The position numbers and the translations under genes are program-made. Below the pieces are notes generated by a model. That model was not told the origin of the DNA. It was given only the letters and a program-made list of their open reading frames with translations, and did no database searches. This document shows positions 44,949-57,172 of a stretch of DNA of 64,000 bases, piece after piece (the stretch's first letter is position 1; each line of letters starts with the position of its first letter). This stretch comes from an uncultured Anaeromyxobacter sp. (GTDB lineage Bacteria > Myxococcota > Myxococcia > Myxococcales > Anaeromyxobacteraceae). Location of the stretch: assembly GCA_903904005.1 (NCBI GenBank), contig CAIVAR010000005.1:1-64000 (forward strand). The letters are read 5' to 3'.

Positions 44949-46223
44949 GTGGCCCGTCCCGGGCGGCTGCTGCTCCTCGTCCCCACCCAGAGCTACCGGG
45001 CCGACGATTTCCTCGCCGCGGCGAGCCGGCTCGGCGTCCGGGTCCTCGTCGGCACCGACCGGTGCCACCGGATCGAGGAGGCCTTCGGTCCCGAGGAGGG
45101 GCTGATCTCCGTCGACTACCGGAAGCCCGAGGAGGCGGCGGAGGAGATCGCGCGCGCCGCCGCGCGGGAGCCCCTCGCCGGGGTGATCGCGACCGACGAC
45201 GGCACCGCTGTGATCGCCGCCCTGGCCGCCGAGCGGCTCGGGCTGCCGCGCAATCCCCCCACCGCGGCCCGGCGGACGGCGAGCAAGGTGGCCCAGCGCG
45301 AGGCGCTTCGCGCCGCTGGCCAGCCGGTCCCCTGGTTCCGGGCGTTCCCGCTCCAGGACGGGCCGGACGGTCCCTCCACGGGCGTGCCATACCCCTGCGT
45401 CCTGAAGCCGGTGGGCCTGTCGGGGAGCCGGGGGGTCATCCGGGCCGACGACCCGGCCTCCTTCCGGGAGGCCTGGCGCCGGATCGCGGCCATCCTCGCG
45501 ACGGCCCGCACTGACCGCAAGGCCCGCGAGGAGGGGGAGGGGAGCCGGATCCTGGTGGAGGCCTTCGTGCCGGGCGGGGAGGTGGCGCTCGAAGGGTTGC
45601 TCCGGGACGGGCGGCTCGAGCCCCTCGCGCTCTTCGACAAGCCCGACCCGCTCGACGGACCCTTCTTCGAGGAGACGATCTACGTCACGCCGTCCCGCCT
45701 CCCCGCCGCGGTCCAGGCCGAGGTCGTCACCACCGTCGCCCGGGCCGCCGAGGCGCTCGGCCTGCGGGAAGGTCCGGTCCACGCCGAGGCCCGGCTCGGC
45801 CCGGCGGGGCCCGTGATCCTCGAGGTGGCGGCGCGGACCATCGGGGGGCTCTGCGCCCGGAGCCTTCGCTTCGGGACCGGGGCCTCGCTCGAGGAGCTGG
45901 TGGTCGCCCACGCGGTGGGGCTGCCGCTCTCCTCGGTGCTGCGGGAGGCCCGGGCCTCGGGGGTGATGATGCTCCCCATCCCGCGGCTGGGCATCCTCCA
46001 CGGGGTGGGCGGGCTCGACGCGGCGCGCGCCGTCCCCGGGGTGGAGGATGTCGTCGTCACCGTCCCGGTGGGGCGGGAGGTCGTGCCGCTCCCCGAGGGG
46101 GACGCCTACCTGGGTTTCGCCTTCGCACGCGGGGAGACCCCCGGGGCCGTGGAGGCCTCCCTCCGGGAAGCCGCCGCACGCCTCCTCTGGGACATCCGGG
46201 CACAGCTCCCGACTGTGCGATGA
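44949..46223 (+). CDS. ATP-grasp ligase-like protein, substrate unknown
   Basis: The protein has 424 residues from a GTG that directly abuts the purQ stop. The N-terminal pre-ATP-grasp domain starts RLLLLVPTQSYRADDFLAAA. The ATP-grasp core shows PCVLKPVGLSGSRGVIRADD (nucleotide clamp), RILVEAFVPGGEVALEGLL, and VHAEARLGPAGPVILEVAAR (metal-binding Glu and end of the site) followed by IGGLCARSLRFGTG. This pattern is of the biotin-carboxylase/L-amino-acid-ligase type (carnosine synthase-like, BacD-like), which join an amine to a carboxylate via an acyl-phosphate. Being translationally adjacent to purLQ suggests a nucleotide- or amino acid-related job, but no purine enzyme matches. Confidence 0.8.
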   Translation: MARPGRLLLLVPTQSYRADDFLAAASRLGVRVLVGTDRCHRIEEAFGPEEGLISVDYRKPEEAAEEIARAAAREPLAGVIATDDGTAVIAALAAERLGLPRNPPTAARRTASKVAQREALRAAGQPVPWFRAFPLQDGPDGPSTGVPYPCVLKPVGLSGSRGVIRADDPASFREAWRRIAAILATARTDRKAREEGEGSRILVEAFVPGGEVALEGLLRDGRLEPLALFDKPDPLDGPFFEETIYVTPSRLPAAVQAEVVTTVARAAEALGLREGPVHAEARLGPAGPVILEVAARTIGGLCARSLRFGTGASLEELVVAHAVGLPLSSVLREARASGVMMLPIPRLGILHGVGGLDAARAVPGVEDVVVTVPVGREVVPLPEGDAYLGFAFARGETPGAVEASLREAAARLLWDIRAQLPTVR

Positions 46224-46265: not shown

Positions 46266-49200
46266 ATGATCCGCCGATTCGAATCCATCTTCGCGGCAGC
46301 GATCCTGCTCGCCGCCGGCTGCTCCCCTCGCCCCCCCGCGGGCACCGCGAGGGAGGCGGGCCCCATCGACCTCGCGCCCCTGCCCGAGGCGCCGCCGCTG
46401 CAGATCGCGCAGGAGTCCCTGCCGGGCGCCAACGGATCGCTCGCCGTGGTGGCCTCCCGGCCGAACGGTCCGGCGACGGGCATCGTCGTCCCCAGCATCA
46501 CCTTCTCGAAGCCGGTGGTGGCGCTCGGGACGGTGGCGCAGCAGCGGTCCCTTCCGCCCCCGGCCCGCATCGACCCGCCCGTGGCCGGGGAGTGGCGCTG
46601 GCTGGGATCGGCGAGCGTGGAGTTCGCTCCCGCCGCCCGGCTGCCCGAGGGGACGCTCTTCACCGTCACCGTGCCCGCCGGGTTGCGCGCCGTCGACGGC
46701 TCGGTGCTGGCCGAGCCGCACGTCTTCTCGTTCGAGACCCGGCGCCCCGCCTTCGTGCGCGTGGAGCCGCGGGAAGGCTGGGCCTGGGTGACACCGTCGT
46801 CCCGCTTCTCGATCGTCTTCGACCGCCCGGTCGCCGACCTGGCGAGCCACCTCTCCCTGCGCGCCGGTGGCGCCGAGGTCCCGGTCCGGGTGACCGGCGA
46901 GTTCCGCGTCGCCGACGAGGAGCGTGCGGCCCGGGGCCCCGACGCGGAGGAGTGGCCGCAGGTGCCCGGCTACGAGGACCGGCGGATGCGCTACGAGGTG
47001 ACGCCCGGCCGTCCGCTGCCGATCGATTCCCCGGTGGAGCTCTCGCTCTCCCCCGGGCTCCGCGGGACCGAGGGGCCTCTGGCGATCGCCGAGGGGCTGC
47101 GCTGGAGCTTCCGGACCTACGGGAAGATGGCCATCACCGGGGCGCAGGCCTGCGCCGGCGTCGACCGCTGCCCGTACGGTCCACTCATCGTGAAGACGAC
47201 CAACCCGGCCGACACGCGGACCCTGCGTGACCGGATCCGCATCGAGCCGCCGGCGGAGATCGACTGGAGCCGGGTGGAGACGAGCGAGCCATCGGAGTGG
47301 GAGCCGAACTGGACGCCCCATTTCTCGCTCCCTGGCCGCTTCCGTCCAGGCGTCGCCTACCGGGTGACCATCGCCGCCGGCGTCGCCGACGCCTTCGGGC
47401 AGGCGGGTGGGGCGGCCGTGGTGACGGCGCGGACGAGCGATCTCGAGCCCTCCTTCTCGATGACCCGGGGTGCGGCGCTCCTCGAGGCGGCCGGCGACGG
47501 GGCACTCCCGGTCGAGGCCGAGAACGTCCGCCGGCTCGAGGCGACGGTGTGGCGCCTCACCCCCGCCGACGCCGCCCGCCTCCTCTCCGAGCGGCCCCGG
47601 CGCAAGGGAGCGGGCCCGGTTCTTCCCCCCGGGCAGGTGGTCCGCACGGTCGACCTCGGGACCGAGCGAAACGTGACCAAGACCCGCCCCATCCCCATCC
47701 GACAGATCCTGGGCGGGGCACGGTCGGCCCTCTTCTACGCCAGCGTCCGCTCCCCCGAGCTCGATCCCGCAACCAGCCCACCGGCCACGGTGGTGGGGCA
47801 GATCACCGACCTCGCCGTGCACGCCAAGCTCGGGGCGACCCGCGGCGTGGTCTGGGTGACGCGCCTCTCCGACGGCAAGCCCGCCGCCGGAGCCGCCATC
47901 GCCATCTTCGACGCGACCGGGAAGCGGACCTGGACCGGCAAGGCCGACGCCGAGGGGCTCTGCGTGGTGCCCGGGCTCGGGGGCAAGGACGAGTGGTCGG
48001 CGCGGTCCACGGAGAACGGCTGGCTCGTCGCGGCCACGCTCGGCGACGACACGGGCGTGACCCTGTCGAGCTGGTCCGGTCCGTTCAACCCCTGGTTCTT
48101 CGGCGTGGACGGGGATTGGGACGGGACGGAACCCAGGAGCCTCGGCCTCGTGACGCCGGAGCGGGGGATCTACCGGCCCGGACAGACCGTGTTCGTGAAG
48201 GGGCTCACCCGCTACCGGAAGCTCGGGGCCATCGAGACCCCACCGGCAGGGACCCGCATGCTCGTGAAGCTGACCTCCTCGCGGGGCGTCGACGTAGCCA
48301 CGCAGGAGGTCCCCACCACCGCGTACGGCACCTTCTCGACCCGCTTCACCCTGGACGGCGACGTTCCGCTCGGAACCTACGGCATCACCGCCACCGGCAA
48401 GGTCGCCGGCGGGACGATCCAGTACGGGGGCACGTTCCGGGTGGAGGAGTACCGGGCGCCCCAGTTCCGCGTCGACGTGTCGGTGGCGGAGCGGAGCCTG
48501 GTGGACGGCGATCCGATCCAGGCAACGGTGCTGGCGCGCTACCTCTTCGGCGGCCCGATGGGCGACGCGGAGGTGGCGTGGACGGTGAACCGGTCGACCA
48601 TGGACTTCAGCCCGCCGGGGAACGACGGCTTCCTCTTCGGAAACCAGGTGGGCTTCTGGGACGACCGCGAGCCGGGCCCGGGACGGGGTGTCGCGGGATC
48701 GGGCAAGGGGCGAACCGATGCCACCGGCGCCTTCGCCATCGCCGCGGGCCGGGCCGAAGCGCCGGCCAACCGGACCTGGGAGACCGTCGTCGAGGCCGAG
48801 GTGGCCGACGTGAACCGGCAGCGGGTCGCCGGGAGGACGACGCTCATCGTCCACCCGGCCGCGCTCTACGCCGGGGTGAAGCGGCGCGGCCTGGGCTTCG
48901 CCGAGTCGGGCAAGCCGCTCGGGATCGACGTGGTGGCGGTGACGCCGTCCGGTGCGCGGCAGGCGGCCGACGTCGAGGTGGTGCTGAAGCGCCGGGAGTG
49001 GCGCTCGATCAAGAAGAAGGTGATCGGCGACCGCTGGATGACGGTGACCGAGCCGGTGGAGGAGGCGGCGGGCACGTGCCGCGCCCGCGCCGCCGCGGAG
49101 CCGGGCTCCTGCACCTTTACGCCCGCCTCGCCCGGGTTGCACATCGCCGAGGCGACCGTGACCGACGCCCGCGGGCGCCGGCAGGTGACGCGGGCCCCGT

Positions 49201-52079
49201 TCTACGTGGTGGGGGACGGATGGGTCTCCTGGAACCGCGACGACACCGACCGGGTGGAGATGGTGCCCGACCGGGAGGTCTACGAGGTCGGGTCGACGGC
49301 GCGGATCCTGGTGAAGAGCCCGTTCCCCGACGCCGAGGGGCTGCTCACCGTCGAGCGGGAGGGGGTCCTCGAGCAGCGCCGGGTCCGGCTGGGATCGGCC
49401 GCGGCGACCTTCGAGATCCCGATCACCGAGGCCTCGGTTCCCAACGTCTTCGCGAGCATCGTGATCGTTCGCGGACGCCAGGGCGGGATGCCGGTGAGCG
49501 CCAAGGACGACCCTGGACGCCCCACCGTCCGCATCGGCTACACCCAGCTGCGCGTGGAGCGGAAGGGGAAGCGGCTCCAGGTGGACATCGCCGTCGACGC
49601 ACCGGAGAAGCGGCCGCGCGACAAGGTGACGCTCGACGTCCAGGTGAAGGACGCCGCCGGGAAGGGAACGGCGGCGGAGGTCGCGATCTGGGCCGTCGAC
49701 GAGGGGGTGCTCCGGCTCACCGGCTACAAGGTCCCCGACCCGGTGGAGGCCATCCACCCCCTGCGCGGACTCTCGGTGCGGGTGGCCGAGTCGCTCGTTC
49801 AGCTCGTCCTGCGCAAGGCCTACGGCGACAAGGGGCTCGCCGAGGGGGGCAGCGGCGGGCTCGACCCGTCCGGCTCGGCCTTCCGCGCCAACTTCCGGAC
49901 CACGGCGGTGTTCCTGCCCGACGTGGTCACCGACGCCTCGGGCCACGCCCGGGTCGAGTTCGAGCTGCCCGACAACCTGACCACCTTCCGCATCATGGCG
50001 ATCGCCGCGACGAAGGGGGACCGGGTCGGCAGCGGCGAGAGCAAGGTCGTGGTCGTGAAGCCGCTCCTCGCGCTGCCGGCGCTGCCCCGGCTGGCCCGCG
50101 TCGGGGATGCCTTCGAGGCCGGCGTGGTGATCCACGCCACGGGCGGGAAGGTCCGCCAGGCCGAGGTGGCCGTCTCCGCCACCGGCCTCGTGCTGGAGGG
50201 GGATGCGAAGCGGAAGGTCGACCTCGTGCCCGGGAAGGCCCGGGAGGTCCGCTTCAAGTTCCGCGCCGAGAAGCCGGGCGAGGCGGTGCTGCGCTTCACG
50301 GTCACCGGCGGCGGGGAGTCGGACGGCGTCGAGCAGCGGATCCCGGTGGTGCTGCCGGTGTCGCGCGAGGCGGTCGCCGTGCACGGGGACACCCGGGGCG
50401 TCCGACAGGAGGCGATGACGCCGCCCGCCGGCGTGCGCCCCGACGTGGGGGGGCTCGAGCTCTCCCTGTCGTCGACCGCCATGGCCGGACTGCAGGAGGG
50501 GATGAGGCAGCTCGTCGACTACCCGTACGGCTGCCTGGAGCAGCTCTCCTCCCGGCTCGTGCCCTTCACGGCCCTGCGCGAGCTCTCGGACAAGTTCGGG
50601 GTGGTGGCCACCCCGGGGGGGCCGAACGAGGCGGATGCCTGGATGCGCGACTGGGTGGGGGACGATTCCCTCGCCATCCTCGACGCTCGGGATCCCGACG
50701 AGGTCATTCGACGGACGGTGAAGGCGATCGAGCGGCTCCAGGGACCGGATGGCGGCTACCGCTACTGGCCCGGCGGGAGCTGCTCGGACGAGCTGGCGAG
50801 CGCCTGGGCGGTCCTGGCGCTGGGCCGGACGGCTGCGCTCGGGTACCCGGTGGACGCGGCGGCGCTCGACCGGGGGCAGCAATACCTCGCGGGGACGGTC
50901 GCGGCCGGGAAGTGCACCGACTGCGGCTTCGGATGTCGGCCGCCGCCCCCGTCCACGCGGGTCTTCGCCCTCTGGGCCCTGGCCCGAACCGGGGCTCCGA
51001 AGGGCTCCTACCTCGGTGCCCTGTACGCGGAACGGGAGAAGCTCCCGCTCTTCGCACGGGCCATGCTCGCCGACGCCATGTTCGTGGGAGGCGGAAACAG
51101 GGCCCAGGCCCGGACGCTCCTCGGCGAGGTGTTGAACCAGGCGCGGGTATCGGACGCCGAGGTCCACATGGAGGACGAGCAGGGACCGATCGGCCAGGCC
51201 CGCTGGTCGTCCGACGTGCGCACCACCGCCATCGTCCTGCAGACCCTCACCGATCTGAGCCCGGACCACCCGTTCGTCGGGAAGATGGCCGCCTGGCTGG
51301 TCGCCGCGCGGGGGAAGGACGGCCGGTACCGCAACACACAGGAGGCGGCCTTCGCGCTCTCGGCGATGGCCGAGGTGGTCCGCACGAAGGAGCGGGAGGT
51401 CCCCGACTTCACCGGGACGGTTCGGCTCGGCGGGCGAACGCTCGCCGCCGTTCCCTTCCACGGGCGGTCGCTCGCCCTGGCCCGCAGCGCCGTCCCCATC
51501 GCGGAGCTGGGGCAGGGCGGGGCCGCGGTCCCCTTCGAGTTCCGGCGCGACGGGCGGGCCGGCGTCCTCTACTACGGGGCGCTGCTGCGCTACGCGCCGG
51601 CCCAGATGCCGGTCGACCCGCTCGACCGGGGCATCTTCGTCCAGCGCTGGTTCGAGCCCTGGGGTGGGGGAGGGCAGGTGCGCACCGTGCGCGCCGGCGA
51701 CCTCCTGCGCGTGCACGTCCGGCTGGGCACCTCGAAGGCCCGCAGGGACGTCGCCGTGGAGGTGCCCGTGCCGGCCGGCCTGGAGATCGTCGACACCTCC
51801 CTCGCCAGCACTGCATCGGCCGGCGGGACGCCCGACTACGGCAGCGGCTTCTGGAGCCCGTGGAGCCACGTGGAGCGGCGGGACGACCGGCTGCTGCTCT
51901 TCGCCGACGAGCTCCCCCCGGGGATCCACGAGAAGAGCTTCGTCGTCCGGGCCACCACGCCGGGGCGCTTCCTCTCCCGTCCGGCCCAGGCCGAGGAGAT
52001 GTACGCCCCGGAGGTCTTCGGCCGCTCCGACGGCGGGACCTTCGTCGTGGTCGACGCGGAGGCGCCGGAGGGGCGGTGA
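46266..52079 (+). CDS. Bacterial alpha-2-macroglobulin lipoprotein
   Basis: The protein has 1937 residues. The lipoprotein signal ends ILLAAGC, so it is anchored to a membrane facing the periplasm. The order is: N-terminal MG domains, a bait-region candidate, the MG/ANL domains with VTPERGIYRPGQTVFVKGL and VPDREVYEVGSTARILVKSPF, and the thioester domain. The thioester is intact: Cys1423 and Gln1426 in YGCLEQLSSR. EVAIWAVDEGVLRLTGYKVPDP is the usual segment of the family. Such proteins trap attacking proteases covalently and are proposed to guard the envelope with PBP1C. Here pbpC follows with a GTGA overlap, the classical pairing (E. coli yfhM-pbpC). Confidence 0.94.
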   Translation: MIRRFESIFAAAILLAAGCSPRPPAGTAREAGPIDLAPLPEAPPLQIAQESLPGANGSLAVVASRPNGPATGIVVPSITFSKPVVALGTVAQQRSLPPPARIDPPVAGEWRWLGSASVEFAPAARLPEGTLFTVTVPAGLRAVDGSVLAEPHVFSFETRRPAFVRVEPREGWAWVTPSSRFSIVFDRPVADLASHLSLRAGGAEVPVRVTGEFRVADEERAARGPDAEEWPQVPGYEDRRMRYEVTPGRPLPIDSPVELSLSPGLRGTEGPLAIAEGLRWSFRTYGKMAITGAQACAGVDRCPYGPLIVKTTNPADTRTLRDRIRIEPPAEIDWSRVETSEPSEWEPNWTPHFSLPGRFRPGVAYRVTIAAGVADAFGQAGGAAVVTARTSDLEPSFSMTRGAALLEAAGDGALPVEAENVRRLEATVWRLTPADAARLLSERPRRKGAGPVLPPGQVVRTVDLGTERNVTKTRPIPIRQILGGARSALFYASVRSPELDPATSPPATVVGQITDLAVHAKLGATRGVVWVTRLSDGKPAAGAAIAIFDATGKRTWTGKADAEGLCVVPGLGGKDEWSARSTENGWLVAATLGDDTGVTLSSWSGPFNPWFFGVDGDWDGTEPRSLGLVTPERGIYRPGQTVFVKGLTRYRKLGAIETPPAGTRMLVKLTSSRGVDVATQEVPTTAYGTFSTRFTLDGDVPLGTYGITATGKVAGGTIQYGGTFRVEEYRAPQFRVDVSVAERSLVDGDPIQATVLARYLFGGPMGDAEVAWTVNRSTMDFSPPGNDGFLFGNQVGFWDDREPGPGRGVAGSGKGRTDATGAFAIAAGRAEAPANRTWETVVEAEVADVNRQRVAGRTTLIVHPAALYAGVKRRGLGFAESGKPLGIDVVAVTPSGARQAADVEVVLKRREWRSIKKKVIGDRWMTVTEPVEEAAGTCRARAAAEPGSCTFTPASPGLHIAEATVTDARGRRQVTRAPFYVVGDGWVSWNRDDTDRVEMVPDREVYEVGSTARILVKSPFPDAEGLLTVEREGVLEQRRVRLGSAAATFEIPITEASVPNVFASIVIVRGRQGGMPVSAKDDPGRPTVRIGYTQLRVERKGKRLQVDIAVDAPEKRPRDKVTLDVQVKDAAGKGTAAEVAIWAVDEGVLRLTGYKVPDPVEAIHPLRGLSVRVAESLVQLVLRKAYGDKGLAEGGSGGLDPSGSAFRANFRTTAVFLPDVVTDASGHARVEFELPDNLTTFRIMAIAATKGDRVGSGESKVVVVKPLLALPALPRLARVGDAFEAGVVIHATGGKVRQAEVAVSATGLVLEGDAKRKVDLVPGKAREVRFKFRAEKPGEAVLRFTVTGGGESDGVEQRIPVVLPVSREAVAVHGDTRGVRQEAMTPPAGVRPDVGGLELSLSSTAMAGLQEGMRQLVDYPYGCLEQLSSRLVPFTALRELSDKFGVVATPGGPNEADAWMRDWVGDDSLAILDARDPDEVIRRTVKAIERLQGPDGGYRYWPGGSCSDELASAWAVLALGRTAALGYPVDAAALDRGQQYLAGTVAAGKCTDCGFGCRPPPPSTRVFALWALARTGAPKGSYLGALYAEREKLPLFARAMLADAMFVGGGNRAQARTLLGEVLNQARVSDAEVHMEDEQGPIGQARWSSDVRTTAIVLQTLTDLSPDHPFVGKMAAWLVAARGKDGRYRNTQEAAFALSAMAEVVRTKEREVPDFTGTVRLGGRTLAAVPFHGRSLALARSAVPIAELGQGGAAVPFEFRRDGRAGVLYYGALLRYAPAQMPVDPLDRGIFVQRWFEPWGGGGQVRTVRAGDLLRVHVRLGTSKARRDVAVEVPVPAGLEIVDTSLASTASAGGTPDYGSGFWSPWSHVERRDDRLLLFADELPPGIHEKSFVVRATTPGRFLSRPAQAEEMYAPEVFGRSDGGTFVVVDAEAPEGR

Positions 52080-54400
52080 GGCGCCGGGTGGCGAGGTGGC
52101 TCCTCCGGGGAGCCCTGGCGTCCTGCGCGGTCGCGGGTGCCGCCACGCTCGCCTTCGTCTCCTGGCCGCTGCCCGAAGGGCTCCTCGAGCGGAGCCACGC
52201 CGAGACGCTCCGCTTCACCTGGCGTGACGGGCGCCCGCTGCGCGACGTGAACGGCGGGCCGGACGGGCGGCGCATCGGGCTGCCGCCCGGCGAGCCCCTG
52301 CCGCCACGGGTGGTCGGGGCCTTCCTGGCCACCGAGGACCGGCGCTTCGGCGTGCACCCCGGGGTCGATCCGCTGGCCGTGGCGCGCGCGACGGGGCAGA
52401 ACCTCCGGGCCCGCCGCATCGTGAGCGGCGGATCCACCGTGGCCCAGCAGCTGGCGCGCCTGCTCGTGCCCCGGCCCCGGACCCTCTCCGGGAAGGTGCA
52501 GGAAGCGCTCTGGGCCGTTCGACTCACCGTGCACCTCACCCCCGAGACCCGCCTCCGGGCCTGGCTCGACCGCATCGCGCTGGGGAACGACCTGCGCGGG
52601 GTCGAGGCCGCCGCCCAGGCCTACTTCGGACGCCCGGCCGCCGCGCTCTCCACGGGACAGGCGGCGATGCTCGCCGGGATGGCCGGCTCCCCGGCCCGCT
52701 TCGATCCGCGCCGCCATCCGGAGGCGGCGGCCGCCCGCATGCGGCTCGCCCTGCGCCGCATGGTCCGGACCGGCGCCGTGACCGGGGAGGAGGCCGTGGC
52801 CGCCGCGGAGGCTCCGCTCGACCTGTCCGTCCCGGGCCGCCCGTTCGGCGCCCCCCACCTCACCACCTGGCTGCTCGCCAGCCGGGGCCTCCTGGGGCTC
52901 GAGCGGGCCGTCTCCATCGAGACCACGCTCGACGAGGGGCTGCAGCAGGACCTGGAGGCGATCCTCCAGGAGCAGGTCGAGGGGGACCGGCGCGTGGAGC
53001 AGGCCGCGTCCCTCGTGATCGACAACGCCACCGGCGAGGTCCTGGCCTACGCCGGCTCGGCCGATTTCCACGACGAGGAGCGGCAGGGGCAGAACGACGG
53101 CGTCCGCTCCCCGAGGCAACCCGGCAGCGCGCTCAAGCCCTTCGCCTACGGGCTCGCGCTCGCCGACGGGCTCACGCCCGCGACGCTCCTCTCCGACGTC
53201 GAGATCCAGCTCAGCACTCCGTCGGGGAGCTGGGTCCCGCGCAACTATGACCGGAGGGTTCACGGTCCGGTCCGGCTCCGGGCGGCGCTCGCCAACAGCT
53301 ACAACGTCCCCGCCGTCCGGCTCGTCGACCGGATCGGGCCGGATCGGGTCCTGGCCGTGCTCCGGAAGGCCGGCCTCGCGTCGCTCCGGGAGGGGGTCGA
53401 CCACTACGGGTCGGGCATCGTCCTCGGGAACGGCGACGTGACCCTGCGGGAGCTCGCCCGCGCGTACCGGGGGCTCGCGCTCGGAGGCCGGCTCGAGCCG
53501 CTCACCGAGATCCGGTCGGCGCGGGACGGCGACGGGCGTGCCCTGCGTCCGCGCCCCGAGGTCGAGCCGGATCGGTTCCTGCCGGCGGGCGCCGTCGCCC
53601 TCCTCACCGACATCCTCGCCGACGAGCCGGCCCGTGCCCCGGCCTTCGGGCTCGACAACGCGCTGCGCCTGCCCTTCCCCGTGGCGGCGAAGACGGGCAC
53701 GAGCCACGCCTTCGTCGACAACTGGACGGTCGGCTACACGGCCGAGCGCACCGTCGCGGTCTGGGCCGGGAACTTCGACGGCCACCCGATGCGCGGCGTC
53801 TCGGGCATCAGCGGCGCGGCGCCGATCTTCTCCCGCGTGATGGAGCGGGCCATGCGGGGCATCGCGCCCCGTCCCCTCGTCGACCGGAGCGCGTTCCAGC
53901 GGGCGCGGGTCTGCACCCTCTCCGGCGCGCTCGCCGGCCCCGCCTGCCCGTCGGCGGTGGACGAGTCGTTCCTGCCCGGTACCGCGCCAGGGGATCCCTG
54001 CCCGATGCACCGCCACGTGGGGCCCGGAGGGCTCGACGTGGGGCCCGAGTTCTACGGGTGGGCGGCGGCCGAGGGGATCGACGGCGGCCCCCGGGCAGTC
54101 CCGGCGCCGGGGGCCTCGACGGGGCCCGGGGACATCGTCCTCCCCGCCGACGGCGACGAGTACCTCCTCGACGCGGGGCTGCCCGCCGTGGCTCAGTCCA
54201 TTCCCGTCCGCATCCGCCCCCCGGCCGGAGCCGCGCGGGTCGAGCTGCGGCAGGAGGATGGCGCGGTCCTGGCGCTCGAGGCTCCGTTCGCCGGCCGCCT
54301 CCCCGCACTCCCCGGGCGCCACCGGGTGGAGCTGTGGGTCCCCGGGGGCACGGGTCCGGTCGCGCGGGCGACCTACCAGGTGCGCGGGGGCGCGCCGTGA
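52076..54400 (+). CDS. pbpC: Penicillin-binding protein 1C (bifunctional)
   Basis: The protein has 774 residues from GTG 52076, overlapping the macroglobulin stop. The N-terminal transmembrane anchor (ALASCAVAGAATLAFVSW) is followed by the GT51 glycosyltransferase domain with catalytic Glu87 in ATEDRRFGVHPG and GGSTVAQQLAR. The transpeptidase domain has all three motifs: Ser351-x-x-Lys354 (PGSALKPF), Ser408-Tyr-Asn410 (ANSYNVPAV) and Lys539-Thr-Gly (AKTGTSHAF). The C-terminal ~85 residues are the BiPBP_C beta domain typical of PBP1C. It therefore should polymerise and crosslink peptidoglycan, probably for repair next to the protease trap encoded upstream. Confidence 0.95.
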   Translation: MRRRVARWLLRGALASCAVAGAATLAFVSWPLPEGLLERSHAETLRFTWRDGRPLRDVNGGPDGRRIGLPPGEPLPPRVVGAFLATEDRRFGVHPGVDPLAVARATGQNLRARRIVSGGSTVAQQLARLLVPRPRTLSGKVQEALWAVRLTVHLTPETRLRAWLDRIALGNDLRGVEAAAQAYFGRPAAALSTGQAAMLAGMAGSPARFDPRRHPEAAAARMRLALRRMVRTGAVTGEEAVAAAEAPLDLSVPGRPFGAPHLTTWLLASRGLLGLERAVSIETTLDEGLQQDLEAILQEQVEGDRRVEQAASLVIDNATGEVLAYAGSADFHDEERQGQNDGVRSPRQPGSALKPFAYGLALADGLTPATLLSDVEIQLSTPSGSWVPRNYDRRVHGPVRLRAALANSYNVPAVRLVDRIGPDRVLAVLRKAGLASLREGVDHYGSGIVLGNGDVTLRELARAYRGLALGGRLEPLTEIRSARDGDGRALRPRPEVEPDRFLPAGAVALLTDILADEPARAPAFGLDNALRLPFPVAAKTGTSHAFVDNWTVGYTAERTVAVWAGNFDGHPMRGVSGISGAAPIFSRVMERAMRGIAPRPLVDRSAFQRARVCTLSGALAGPACPSAVDESFLPGTAPGDPCPMHRHVGPGGLDVGPEFYGWAAAEGIDGGPRAVPAPGASTGPGDIVLPADGDEYLLDAGLPAVAQSIPVRIRPPAGAARVELRQEDGAVLALEAPFAGRLPALPGRHRVELWVPGGTGPVARATYQVRGGAP

Positions 54401-55542
54401 GCGGGACCGGCGCGCTGGCACTCGCGATCCTTCTCGGCGCCACGGGGAGCGGGCTCCCGGAGGAGCTCTCGGTGCGGATCCTCGGGCGGCTGCACCCGTC
54501 GTCGGTGCGGATCACCCGGCCGGGCGAGGCCCACGTGGCGGCCGTTTCGGGCGACCGGCTCTGGGTCGACGGACGGGTCGCAGCGGAGCCTCGTTCCTTC
54601 CCGGAGGGACGGTGGCGCGTCGAGGTCGACGGGGTTCCCGCCCGCCCGTACGTCGGGGCGATCACGCTCTCGCGCGACGGTCGGGAGGTGGAGGTGGTGG
54701 TCCGGATCGGGCTCGAGGAGTACGTGGCGTCGGTGGTCGCGGCCGAGACCGAGATGGGAACGCCGCTCGAGGCGCTGAAGGCCCTCGCCGTGGTGGCCCG
54801 TTCCTACGCTGCCTCGGCCCGGGACCGGCATGAGGGCGCGGACCTGTGCGACCTCGCCCATTGCCAGGTCATGGGCCCGGCGGGGACGGGCGTCCACCGG
54901 GCCGCTGCGGTGGCGGCCGCCCGTTCCACCTCCGGGCAGGCGCTGCGGGTCGACGGCGAGCGGGTGGCGGAGGCGCTCTTCCACGCGGCCTGCGGGGGGC
55001 ACACCGCCGATCCGGCCGAGGTCTTCGGGGGCGAGGGTACCGGGGCGGCTGCCATGCCCGATCCGGGATGCGCTCCCGCGCCCTGGCAGGCACGGGTCGG
55101 GGAGCCGCTCCTCGCCCGGGTCGCGGGGCGGGAGTTCGCCGCGGGGAGGGGGATCGAGACGCCCGTTCCCGTCGACGCCCTGCGCTTCCTCCGCGGCAAG
55201 GGGGGCTACGTGATCCAGGTCGCAGGCGAGGACGCCGTGGTCCGCGGGGAGACCTTCACGCGGGCCCTCGACCGGGCCCTCGGGCACGGGAGGGTGCGCG
55301 GTTCCCGGTTCGAGGTTCGCCGGTCGGAAGGCGCCCTCCGGATCACCGGGAGCGGCATCGGTCACGGCGTCGGCCTCTGCCAGACCGGCGCGGCGAGGAG
55401 GGCGGGTGAGGGGCAGGGGTACGAGCAGATCCTCCGCCACTACTTCCCCCGGGCCCACCTCGACCCGGCCGTTCTCACGCTCGGTCCCGCGGAGCCAACT
55501 GCCCCGCCGTGGGCTCCGCTCAGCAGAACCAGTTCTCGGTGA
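54397..55542 (+). CDS. SpoIID/LytB-domain protein
   Basis: The protein has 381 residues from GTG 54397, overlapping the pbpC stop. A short hydrophobic N-terminus (GALALAILLGATGSG) may be a signal. The SpoIID/LytB fold is clear: LEEYVASVVAAETEMGTPLEALKAL, then VVARSYAASARDRH, AHCQVMGP, FHAACGGHTADPAEVFGG, and the end motif GSGIGHGVGLCQTGAARRA, GYEQILRHYFPRAHL. In Bacillus, SpoIID cleaves glycan strands lacking stem peptides. Non-sporulating relatives are thought to be lytic transglycosylases or amidase activators. Operon position after pbpC supports a peptidoglycan role. The last ~30 residues are unconserved, and the 3' end overlaps the antisense radical SAM tail. Confidence 0.9.
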   Translation: MSGTGALALAILLGATGSGLPEELSVRILGRLHPSSVRITRPGEAHVAAVSGDRLWVDGRVAAEPRSFPEGRWRVEVDGVPARPYVGAITLSRDGREVEVVVRIGLEEYVASVVAAETEMGTPLEALKALAVVARSYAASARDRHEGADLCDLAHCQVMGPAGTGVHRAAAVAAARSTSGQALRVDGERVAEALFHAACGGHTADPAEVFGGEGTGAAAMPDPGCAPAPWQARVGEPLLARVAGREFAAGRGIETPVPVDALRFLRGKGGYVIQVAGEDAVVRGETFTRALDRALGHGRVRGSRFEVRRSEGALRITGSGIGHGVGLCQTGAARRAGEGQGYEQILRHYFPRAHLDPAVLTLGPAEPTAPPWAPLSRTSSR

Positions 55543-56890
55543 GGCGGGGCGTTCCGGCGGTCGTGAACGGGCGGGCCACGTGGGAGTGGGCCCGGCCCGC
55601 GGCGGCGAGCGCGAGCGCCCTCACCTCGGCCACCGTGGTGGCGGGGTCGTCGCCGCGGGTGGCCGCCGCGGAGACGAGCGCGGCGACCCGGGTCTGGAGG
55701 TCGTCCATCCGGGGATCGGGGTGGCGCCACCGCCAGGAGAGCGCCGCCGGGTCGAGCCCCTCGAGCGGAAGCTCCGGGTCGCCGAGGAGAAGCGACCCGG
55801 GCGGCACCAGCAGGCGGAGCGAGAGCTGGACGGGGTCGATCCGCCCGATCCACCCCCGCTCCTCGAAGGTCTCGACGAGCTCGAGGTAGCCCTCGAGGGT
55901 CTCCCAGGGGGTGAAGGGGACGAGGGTGGGGCGGAGCGGGAGCCCCGCCCGGTCGCAGGCGTCGAAGGCGCGGAGGACGTCGGCCCGGACGTGCCCCTTC
56001 TCGAGCTTCCCGAGCACCCGGTCGGAGAGCGACTCGACCGCCGACACGACGAAGATCGCACCGCAGGCGACGAGCTCGGGGAGCAGCGCGGCGTCCCGCA
56101 CCAGGTGCTCCACCTTGGCGGTGAAGTCGAAGGTGACCGCGGGGAAGCGGCGGCGGAACTCCCGCGCGACCCGGAGCGCGTGCCCCGGCCCGTTCAGGAA
56201 GTCGGGGTCGCCGAAGGTGAGGTGGGTGACGCCCCGCGCGACCTGCTGCGCGACGTCGTCGAGGACCGTCTCCACCGGGACCGCGAGGAAGCGCCCGTCG
56301 TAGACGGCGGGGATGGGGCAGTGGCGGCAGCGGTGGAGGCAGCCGCGCGTGGCCTCGGTGTAGCCGGCGGTCCGCTCGCTCCCGTCGACCTCCCGCAGCC
56401 GGGCGTAGCGCGCCGGAGACGGCAGCCCGTCGCGCAGCGGGACCGGGAAGGCGAGCCGCCCCCGCGACGCGGCCGCGCCGCCCCGCTGGACGAACCGGGA
56501 CAGATCCTCGCCCCGCTCGACCGCCTGCGCGAGCGCCACCAGTTCCTCCTCGCACTCGCCCCCGAGCACGGCGCAGGCGCCGGCCTCGAGGAGCAGATTG
56601 GCGTGGAGCGGCGCATAGGTCCCGTGGAAGGCGATCCGGGCCGAGGGGTCGAGGGAGCGGATCCGCGCCGCGGCGTCGAGCCCCAGCCGCAGCGCGGTGT
56701 GCATCGGGACCGAGATGGCGACGAGCCGGGCACGGGCCACGCGCGCCTCGTCGAGCGGCTCGACAGCGAGGTCGAGCGTGGCCGGCCGGAAGCCGGCCCG
56801 CGCCAGGAAGGCGGCGGGCCAGGCGATGCCCTGCGGCTGGTGTCCCAGCTCGTAGGTGGAGACGAGGAGGACCGCTCCCTCGCCCCGCAT
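55475..56890 (-). CDS. CUAEP-tail radical SAM selenoprotein (B12-binding-type N-domain)
   Basis: The protein has 471 residues if the in-frame TGA at 55522-55520 is read as selenocysteine (Sec457), and 456 if not. The N-terminal ~140 residues resemble a cobalamin-binding Rossmann domain (VLLVSTYELGHQPQGIAWPAAFL, ending GGECEEELV), though without the classical DxHxxG. The radical SAM cluster is Cys184-x3-Cys188-x2-Cys191 (RGCLHRCRHCPIP). The tail reads NWFC-Sec-AEPT and then ten further residues to a TGA at 55475. This matches the annotation-level family I recall as CUAEP/CCAEP-tail radical SAM proteins. A perfect hairpin begins right after the TGA. Substrate is unknown. It is three bases downstream of yggX in one operon. 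Confidence 0.88.
55489..55519 (-). promoter_or_regulatory. Candidate bacterial SECIS hairpin
   Basis: On the minus strand, GCGGAGCC (55519-55512) pairs perfectly with GGCTCCGC (55496-55489) around a 15-base G-rich loop (CACGGCGGGGCAGTT). The stem begins at the base after the TGA, in the position of bacterial SECIS elements that recruit SelB. There is no T-tract and the hairpin lies within spoIID-like coding sequence on the other strand, arguing against a terminator. Confidence 0.7.
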
Positions 56891-56893
56891 CGA

Positions 56894-57172
56894 CTACCCC
56901 TTGCGAGGCGGGGGGACGAACTCGGGCGGCAGCTGCGCGCCCTCGCCGAAGAAGAACTGCTCCGCCTGCTGGAACAGGATCTGGTTCGTGCGGGGGTCGC
57001 CCGGCGCGAGCCGGTACTCGTTCAGGATCATCTTGAAGTGCTCGAGCCACATCTTCCAGGCGTCCTGGGAGATCGACTCGTAGATGCGCTGTCCGAGCTC
57101 GTTGGGGAACGGCCGGAACTCCAGGCCCGGGAGCTCCTTCCCGAGCTTCTTGCAGTGGACCGTGCGCGCCAT
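56894..57172 (-). CDS. yggX: Fe(2+)-trafficking / oxidative damage protection protein YggX
   Basis: The protein has 92 residues, the usual YggX length. Signature: [20 protein letters not shown] with Cys7, then [20 protein letters not shown], then [11 protein letters not shown], then [10 protein letters not shown]. YggX protects iron-sulphur enzymes and reduces Fenton damage in enterobacteria, though its exact mechanism is debated. Here it lies 18 bases after the XRE regulator and 3 bases before the radical SAM selenoprotein. Support for an oxygen-sensitive [4Fe-4S] enzyme is therefore a reasonable reading. Confidence 0.95.

What the first reader, a model, noticed from the sequence alone, without database searches (positions are those of the whole stretch)
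55475..56890. Mis-terminated selenoprotein: radical SAM enzyme with an NWFC-Sec-AEPT tail
Seen directly: the minus-strand gene reaches TGA (55522-55520) preceded by Asn-Trp-Phe-Cys and followed in frame by Ala-Glu-Pro-Thr, then ten more sense codons to a second TGA at 55475. From knowledge: I recall annotation-level families of radical SAM proteins with a conserved CUAEP or CCAEP tail, some of them selenoproteins; to my knowledge their function is not established. Inference: TGA encodes Sec457 and the Cys-Sec pair forms a selenenylsulphide redox site. A standard gene caller would truncate at Cys456 and lose the diagnostic motif.
Basis: partly seen in the sequence, partly recalled or inferred. 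Interest (0 to 1): 0.92.

Follow-up and report, generated by a model that had tools for sequence, protein, structure and literature searches.

The report
Selenocysteine-tailed radical SAM enzyme with partner
A bacterial radical enzyme really does continue past an apparent stop codon, which is read as selenocysteine, and it travels through evolution with an amino-acid ligase, so the two probably make an unknown small amino-acid or peptide product.

Summary
The minus-strand gene at 55475-56890 encodes 471 residues with an in-frame TGA (55522-55520) at position 457, inside LTENWFCUAEP. It is a clear member of the annotated NCBIfam family NF040546 (649 bits, cutoff 500). In 110 homologues with a readable tail, that codon is TGA (93) or Cys (17) and never anything else, with at least four independent switches. 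A 7-bp hairpin just after the TGA is supported by covariation in Sec genes and absent from Cys genes. The genome has selA, selB, tRNA-Sec and a SelD that is itself a selenoprotein. Sec insertion is therefore near certain, short of mass spectrometry.

(1) The gene co-occurs almost perfectly with one ATP-grasp L-amino-acid-ligase-type protein: 32 of 34 Myxococcota genomes (p ~ 4e-33) and 43 of 50 genomes sampled mostly from other phyla. The window's own copy is at 44949-46223. (2) The nearest characterised relative is ArsL, the arsinothricin radical SAM enzyme, which also ends in a vicinal-Cys tail (RCCLKC) and whose clusters usually carry an ATP-grasp gene.

Best reading: an ArsL-like enzyme whose Cys-Sec tail holds a thiophilic substrate, feeding a ligase. 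The chemistry is inferred; the Cys-Sec redox bridge is untested.

The parts
55475..56890 (-). Radical SAM selenoprotein gene, 471 codons plus stop TGA 55477-55475
   Evidence: NF040546 649.2 bits over 468-position profile
55520..55522 (-). Sec457 codon TGA
   Evidence: aligned with TGA or Cys in all 110 readable homologues
55511..55543 (-). Conserved tail motif LTENWFCUAEP (residues 450-460)
   Evidence: Invariant columns in A1
55489..55507 (-). bSECIS hairpin: 7-bp stem GCGGGGC/GCTCCGC with 5-nt loop AGTTG, starting 13 nt after the TGA
   Evidence: Fold; covariation in 81 Sec genes versus 17 Cys genes
56318..56341 (-). Radical SAM CxxxCxxC motif, C184-C188-C191
   Evidence: PF04055 49.5 bits
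56531..56869 (-). N-terminal B12-binding-like domain, residues 8-120
   Evidence: PF02310 31.8 bits, just below its 32.1 cutoff; no DxHxxG seen by eye
44949..46223 (+). Partner ATP-grasp ligase (ATPgrasp_N, ATP-grasp_4, LAL_C2)
   Evidence: co-occurrence
56894..57172 (-). Upstream YggX-type Fe(2+) trafficking / oxidative damage protection gene, ends 4 nt before the selenoprotein start
   Evidence: NF003817 125.9 bits, PF04362; same neighbour in Anaeromyxobacter-type loci

Best explanation
The gene encodes a selenocysteine-containing radical SAM enzyme of the NF040546 (CUAEP/CCAEP-tail) family. Sec457 is inserted by the cell's SelA/SelB/SelD/tRNA-Sec system at a bSECIS hairpin that begins 13 nt after the UGA. 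Working model: a sister of ArsL. The [4Fe-4S] cluster on C184/C188/C191 cleaves SAM reductively. The C-terminal Cys456-Sec457 pair acts as a soft vicinal thiolate/selenolate clamp that binds a thiophilic substrate (a metalloid, or a thiol or selenol compound), and a SAM-derived fragment is joined to it to give an amino-acid-like product. The ATP-grasp ligase at 44949-46223 then couples this product to another amino acid. Shown by computation: family membership, Sec decoding elements, homology to ArsL, linkage to the ligase. Inferred: the tail as substrate ligand, the chemical step, and the peptide product.
For: Family and Sec. SECIS. Sec machinery. Ligase linkage: 39 of 80 loci, window copy, 32 of 34 Myxococcota genomes with the gene also have it and only 1 of 161 without, 43 of 50 genomes mostly of other phyla. 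ArsL kinship: second-best family by 220 bits, reciprocal 298-366 bits, 43 positions invariant in both, both with a C-terminal vicinal Cys(Sec) pair. ArsL-family clusters with an ATP-grasp gene: 7 of 8 examined. ArsL function: PMC8552651.
Against: No arsenic genes lie near CUAEP loci, so the substrate need not be a metalloid. Seven of 50 genomes with the gene, most of them Planctomycetota or Verrucomicrobiota, lack the ligase. The tails of ArsL and CUAEP align only across a gap of about 50 residues, so the Cys pairs may be analogous rather than homologous. The ligases of the two systems are only about 25% identical. Tail-to-cluster distance could not be measured.
Confidence: 0.45

Rival explanations
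1. One reading: Cys456-Sec457 is a redox centre. The flexible tail forms a selenenylsulphide that shuttles electrons, for example to re-reduce the enzyme or a substrate disulphide, as the GCUG tail of thioredoxin reductase does.
For: Adjacent Cys-Sec at a C-terminal tail, Sec exchangeable with Cys; the model gives the tail only intermediate confidence.
Against: The flanking WF and EP residues are invariant, unusual for a mere electron shuttle; the nearest relative ArsL has a comparable Cys tail in an arsenite-using enzyme; no dedicated reductase recurs among the neighbours.
Confidence: 0.25
2. Ordinary 5'-deoxyadenosyl radical chemistry on an organic substrate that the ligase also uses, with the tail only closing or shaping the active site or protecting the cluster.
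For: Canonical CxxxCxxC motif and a fold nearest to AprD4, TsrM, OxsB and MiaB, none of which is known to me to need a Sec tail; no arsenic genes nearby.
Against: Sec is costly and is kept in most lineages (93 of 110), which suggests a chemical role for the side chain.
Confidence: 0.2
3. The radical SAM protein and the ATP-grasp protein are not one pathway; they share only genomic neighbourhood or lifestyle.
For: Seven of 50 genomes with the gene lack the ligase; in this window the two are 9.3 kb apart and convergent.
Against: Near-perfect co-occurrence, with joint absence in sister genomes and adjacency in several phyla; ArsL-family clusters show the same pairing.
Confidence: 0.09
4. The TGA is a true stop, the protein ends at Cys456, and the downstream similarity is a by-product of the overlapping convergent SpoIID frame.
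For: A 456-residue product still scores 628 bits, and the SpoIID reading frame (54058-55542 +) overlaps this end of the gene.
Against: The same tail is conserved in relatives from about a dozen phyla, with Cys in place of TGA in four lineages. Hairpin covariation occurs only in TGA genes. The complete Sec machinery is present.
Confidence: 0.01

Closest known systems
NCBIfam NF040546 rSAM_CUAEP, CUAEP/CCAEP-tail radical SAM (seleno)protein
   Same: Full-length match far above cutoff, CxxxCxxC motif, the diagnostic tail, Sec/Cys alternation
   Different: Nothing of note: this is a member. The family has an annotation name but no function that I found in the held literature
ArsL, arsinothricin biosynthesis radical SAM protein (NF040542, RCCLKC tail)
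   Same: About 31-35% identity over most of the protein, 43 shared invariant positions, C-terminal vicinal Cys pair, frequent ATP-grasp neighbour
   Different: Below the ArsL cutoff (269.5 vs 450), tail is WFCUAEP not RCCLKC, an extra stretch of about 50 residues before the tail, Sec, and no arsenic genes nearby
AprD4 and B12-domain-type radical SAM enzymes (TsrM, OxsB, MgmA)
   Same: Overall fold, Foldseek E 3.5e-18 and TM about 0.68 to AprD4
   Different: About 14-20% identity, no B12 histidine motif seen, Sec tail
L-amino acid ligase BL00235 (for the partner at 44949-46223)
   Same: ATP-grasp plus LAL_C2 architecture, 131 bits to 3vot
   Different: Distant homology; substrates unknown; tied phylogenetically to the CUAEP enzyme

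Membership tests
NF040546 CUAEP/CCAEP-tail radical SAM (seleno)protein | Whole-protein score above curated cutoff of 500 bits | tested here: met
   649.2 bits
NF040546 CUAEP/CCAEP-tail radical SAM (seleno)protein | C[U/C]AEP tail | tested here: met
   NWFCUAEPT; conserved in 110 homologues
Bacterial selenoprotein | In-frame UGA aligned with Cys in some homologues | tested here: met
   93 TGA, 17 Cys; four switches
Bacterial selenoprotein | bSECIS hairpin just downstream of the UGA | tested here: met
   84% paired cells in Sec genes vs 42% in Cys genes; no Rfam SECIS match
Bacterial selenoprotein | selA, selB, selD and tRNA-Sec in the genome | tested here: met
Bacterial selenoprotein | Selenium detected in the protein | not testable with these tools
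   Needs 75Se labelling or mass spectrometry
ArsL (NF040542) | Score above curated cutoff of 450 bits | tested here: not met
   269.5 bits
ArsL (NF040542) | C-terminal RCCLKC | tested here: not met
   WFCUAEP followed by a variable end instead
ArsL (NF040542) | Arsenic gene context (arsM, arsR, arsQ and others) | tested here: not met
   No enrichment around 80 CUAEP loci
ArsL (NF040542) | Makes hydroxyarsinothricin from arsenite and SAM | not testable with these tools
   Needs an enzyme assay
B12-dependent radical SAM enzymes | Functional B12-binding domain | tested here: inconclusive
   PF02310 31.8 bits, cutoff 32.1; no DxHxxG by eye, though some such enzymes bind B12 without it
ATP-grasp L-amino acid ligases (partner) | ATP-grasp domain with LAL_C2 domain | tested here: met
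   ATP-grasp_4 102.9 and LAL_C2 61.8 bits, both above cutoff
ATP-grasp L-amino acid ligases (partner) | Forms peptide bonds between amino acids | not testable with these tools
   Needs an enzyme assay

The most novel reading that the evidence does not exclude
The CUAEP enzyme and its ATP-grasp ligase form a widespread, undescribed two-gene pathway in about a dozen bacterial phyla. It makes a peptide of a new amino acid built by joining a SAM fragment to a thiophilic element or group held by a Cys-Sec clamp, that is, a counterpart of arsinothricin biosynthesis outside arsenic gene clusters.
Probability: 0.3. Interest if true: 0.85.

Novelty: new member of a known kind. Interest (0 to 1): 0.58.

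Why it matters
The family has a curated name but no function that I could find. Tying it to one specific ligase, and to ArsL as the nearest relative with known chemistry, turns an orphan selenoprotein into a testable two-enzyme pathway present in many soil and sediment bacteria. If the Sec tail is a substrate clamp rather than a redox tail, it would be an unusual role for selenocysteine. It also shows a practical annotation error: public gene models of this family can still be cut at the Sec codon (Thermomicrobium roseum).

Tried and rejected
Arsenic cluster near CUAEP loci: 20 seed proteins from the ArsL and Thermomicrobium clusters, mostly arsenic-cluster genes, gave no enrichment of arsenic genes. 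Rfam search of the tail region: only sub-threshold look-alikes, no SECIS family. Literature: CUAEP is in no held paper; the 2026 selenoproteome review names two radical SAM selenoproteins, TIGR04167 and TrsS, and not NF040546; Haft and Gwadz 2023 and Haft and Tolstoy 2025 are not held, so prior discussion there cannot be excluded. Apparent neighbour clusters other than ATP-grasp, DUF169, NfuA-like and YggX looked like shadow frames, generic genes or lineage-specific genes. An alignment with L121-L134 failed on coordinates, and the structure alignment was made without them. Model coordinates were not exposed, so the tail-to-cluster distance was not measured.

Full report
OBSERVATION. The minus-strand frame from ATG 56890 runs through TGA 55522-55520 (codon 457) to TGA 55477-55475, exactly as described. 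The translated product scores 649.2 bits against NCBIfam NF040546, CUAEP/CCAEP-tail radical SAM (seleno)protein (cutoff 500), matching profile positions 1-467 of 468. Without the read-through it still scores 628.4.

SELENOCYSTEINE. In 110 sequences with a readable tail (some are near-duplicates, and the window is counted twice, as itself and as L113), the codon is TGA in 93 and Cys in 17, always preceded by WFC and followed by [AST]EP. On a tree built without the tail, Sec and Cys interchange at least four times (quick method, so deep branching is approximate). Downstream of the codon, a 7-bp stem at +13 to +19 / +25 to +31 with a 5-nt loop AGUUG is present in the window. In 81 distinct Sec genes 84% of pair cells are standard, against 42% in 17 Cys genes, 67% in shuffles of the Sec genes and 28-62% in slid controls, with several pair types at most positions. 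Most of the Sec genes that appear to fail carry the same kind of stem shifted by a base or more (the shifted stems were read by eye). Folding z-scores also differ between Sec and Cys genes (mean -1.33 vs -0.07, p = 6e-6; sequences are related, so the p-value is too small). The genome encodes tRNA-Sec with anticodon TCA, SelB, SelA and a SelD with its own in-frame TGA in HGAGUACK. Together these make Sec insertion near certain. Direct selenium detection was not possible.

ANNOTATION. The public CDS of the Thermomicrobium roseum member ends exactly at its Sec TGA although it is named CUAEP/CCAEP-tail.

THE PARTNER. Clustering neighbours of the 80 loci showed one recurrent gene of known domain make-up, an ATP-grasp protein, in 39 loci. 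It carries ATPgrasp_N, ATP-grasp_4 and LAL_C2 domains and is of the L-amino acid ligase type (nearest solved structure of the window's copy: BL00235). The only own-genome match lies in the window at 44949-46223 + (54% identity), 9.3 kb from the radical SAM gene. In 195 Myxococcota genomes, 34 have the radical SAM gene (four of them as contig-end or partial hits) and 33 the ligase, 32 of them both. The three exceptions are bins of 61, 69 and 74% completeness. Fisher p = 3.7e-33, although related genomes are not independent. Both genes are jointly absent from one sister genus (g6) within the family and from G022 and G027 in another family, which argues against mere shared ancestry. The genes share a contig in 27 of 32 genomes, in 21 of them within 2.7 kb. 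In 50 genomes reached through the other loci, nearly all outside Myxococcota, 43 have the ligase at E of about 1e-43 or better; most of those without it are Planctomycetota or Verrucomicrobiota. Other recurrent neighbours are DUF169 (18 loci), an NfuA-like protein upstream (32 loci) and, in Anaeromyxobacter-type loci and this window, the YggX-type iron trafficking protein. The last two fit supply or protection of Fe-S clusters (inference).

RELATION TO ArsL. The only other family scoring strongly is ArsL, NF040542 (269.5 bits, next 46), and the four ArsL-family proteins tested score 298-366 bits against NF040546. ArsL was shown in a published study to suffice for making hydroxyarsinothricin from arsenite in E. 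coli; transfer of the 3-amino-3-carboxypropyl group of SAM to arsenic was the authors' proposal (PMC8552651). ArsL-family proteins end in RCCLKC. Across 99 CUAEP and 4 ArsL-family proteins, 43 positions are invariant or nearly so in both; two of these are the tail Cys pair, which depends on how the aligner placed the gap. Seven of eight ArsL-family plasmid clusters examined also have an ATP-grasp gene near the radical SAM gene; the exception is the Pseudomonas arsQLM cluster. That ligase is only about 25% identical to the CUAEP partner, so the pairing may have arisen twice. Unlike ArsL, the CUAEP loci show no arsenic genes.

STRUCTURE. An AlphaFold2 model from 48 sequences is confident (mean pLDDT 92). 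Foldseek finds AprD4 first, then TsrM, OxsB, MiaB and MgmA, a fold with a B12-domain-like N-terminus and a radical SAM barrel. B12 binding is not supported: no DxHxxG motif by eye, and the domain falls just below the Pfam cutoff. The tail up to about residue 460 has intermediate confidence and residues 462-471 fall below pLDDT 50.

MECHANISM. Shown: family, Sec decoding, ligase linkage, ArsL kinship. Inferred: that the Cys-Sec pair is a soft-ligand clamp presenting a thiophilic substrate to a SAM-derived radical, and that the ligase builds a peptide from the product. The rigid conservation of WFC[U/C]xEP and the ArsL parallel make me prefer the clamp, with moderate confidence only.

VERDICT. 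Real, correctly read, and a member of a named but functionally open family. The new content is the linked ligase and the ArsL analogy, which make the function directly testable.

Noticed in passing
46266-55542: An alpha-2-macroglobulin gene (46266-52079 +), a penicillin-binding transglycosylase/transpeptidase (C-terminal part of the 47297-54400 + frame) and a SpoIID gene separate the ATP-grasp gene from the selenoprotein gene here and probably in two genomes of the same genus with the same 9.3 kb gap, while most relatives have the two genes close together.
   Followed up: partly
55475-55542: The convergent SpoIID reading frame (54058-55542 +) overlaps the 3' end of the selenoprotein gene by 68 nt, covering the Sec codon and the SECIS hairpin, so these bases may be under triple constraint.
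   Followed up: no
L166, L167, L169-L173: ArsL-family plasmid clusters in Priestia, Alicyclobacillus, Pantoea and Klebsiella carry an ATP-grasp gene, often with an MFS transporter and an ArsM-type methyltransferase, suggesting peptide forms of arsinothricin; no held paper mentions this.
   Followed up: partly
L100 (own genome, C7:13565-14491): The genome's SelD is itself a selenoprotein, with TGA in HGAGUACKIRP.
   Followed up: yes
L026, L030, L032, L050, L065, L075, L085 and others: A DUF169 gene (PF02596) follows the radical SAM gene in 18 of 80 loci, notably in Nitrospirota and Planctomycetota, some of which lack the ATP-grasp gene.
   Followed up: no
L165 8387-8389: The public CDS of the Thermomicrobium roseum family member stops at its Sec TGA although it is named CUAEP/CCAEP-tail.
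   Followed up: yes
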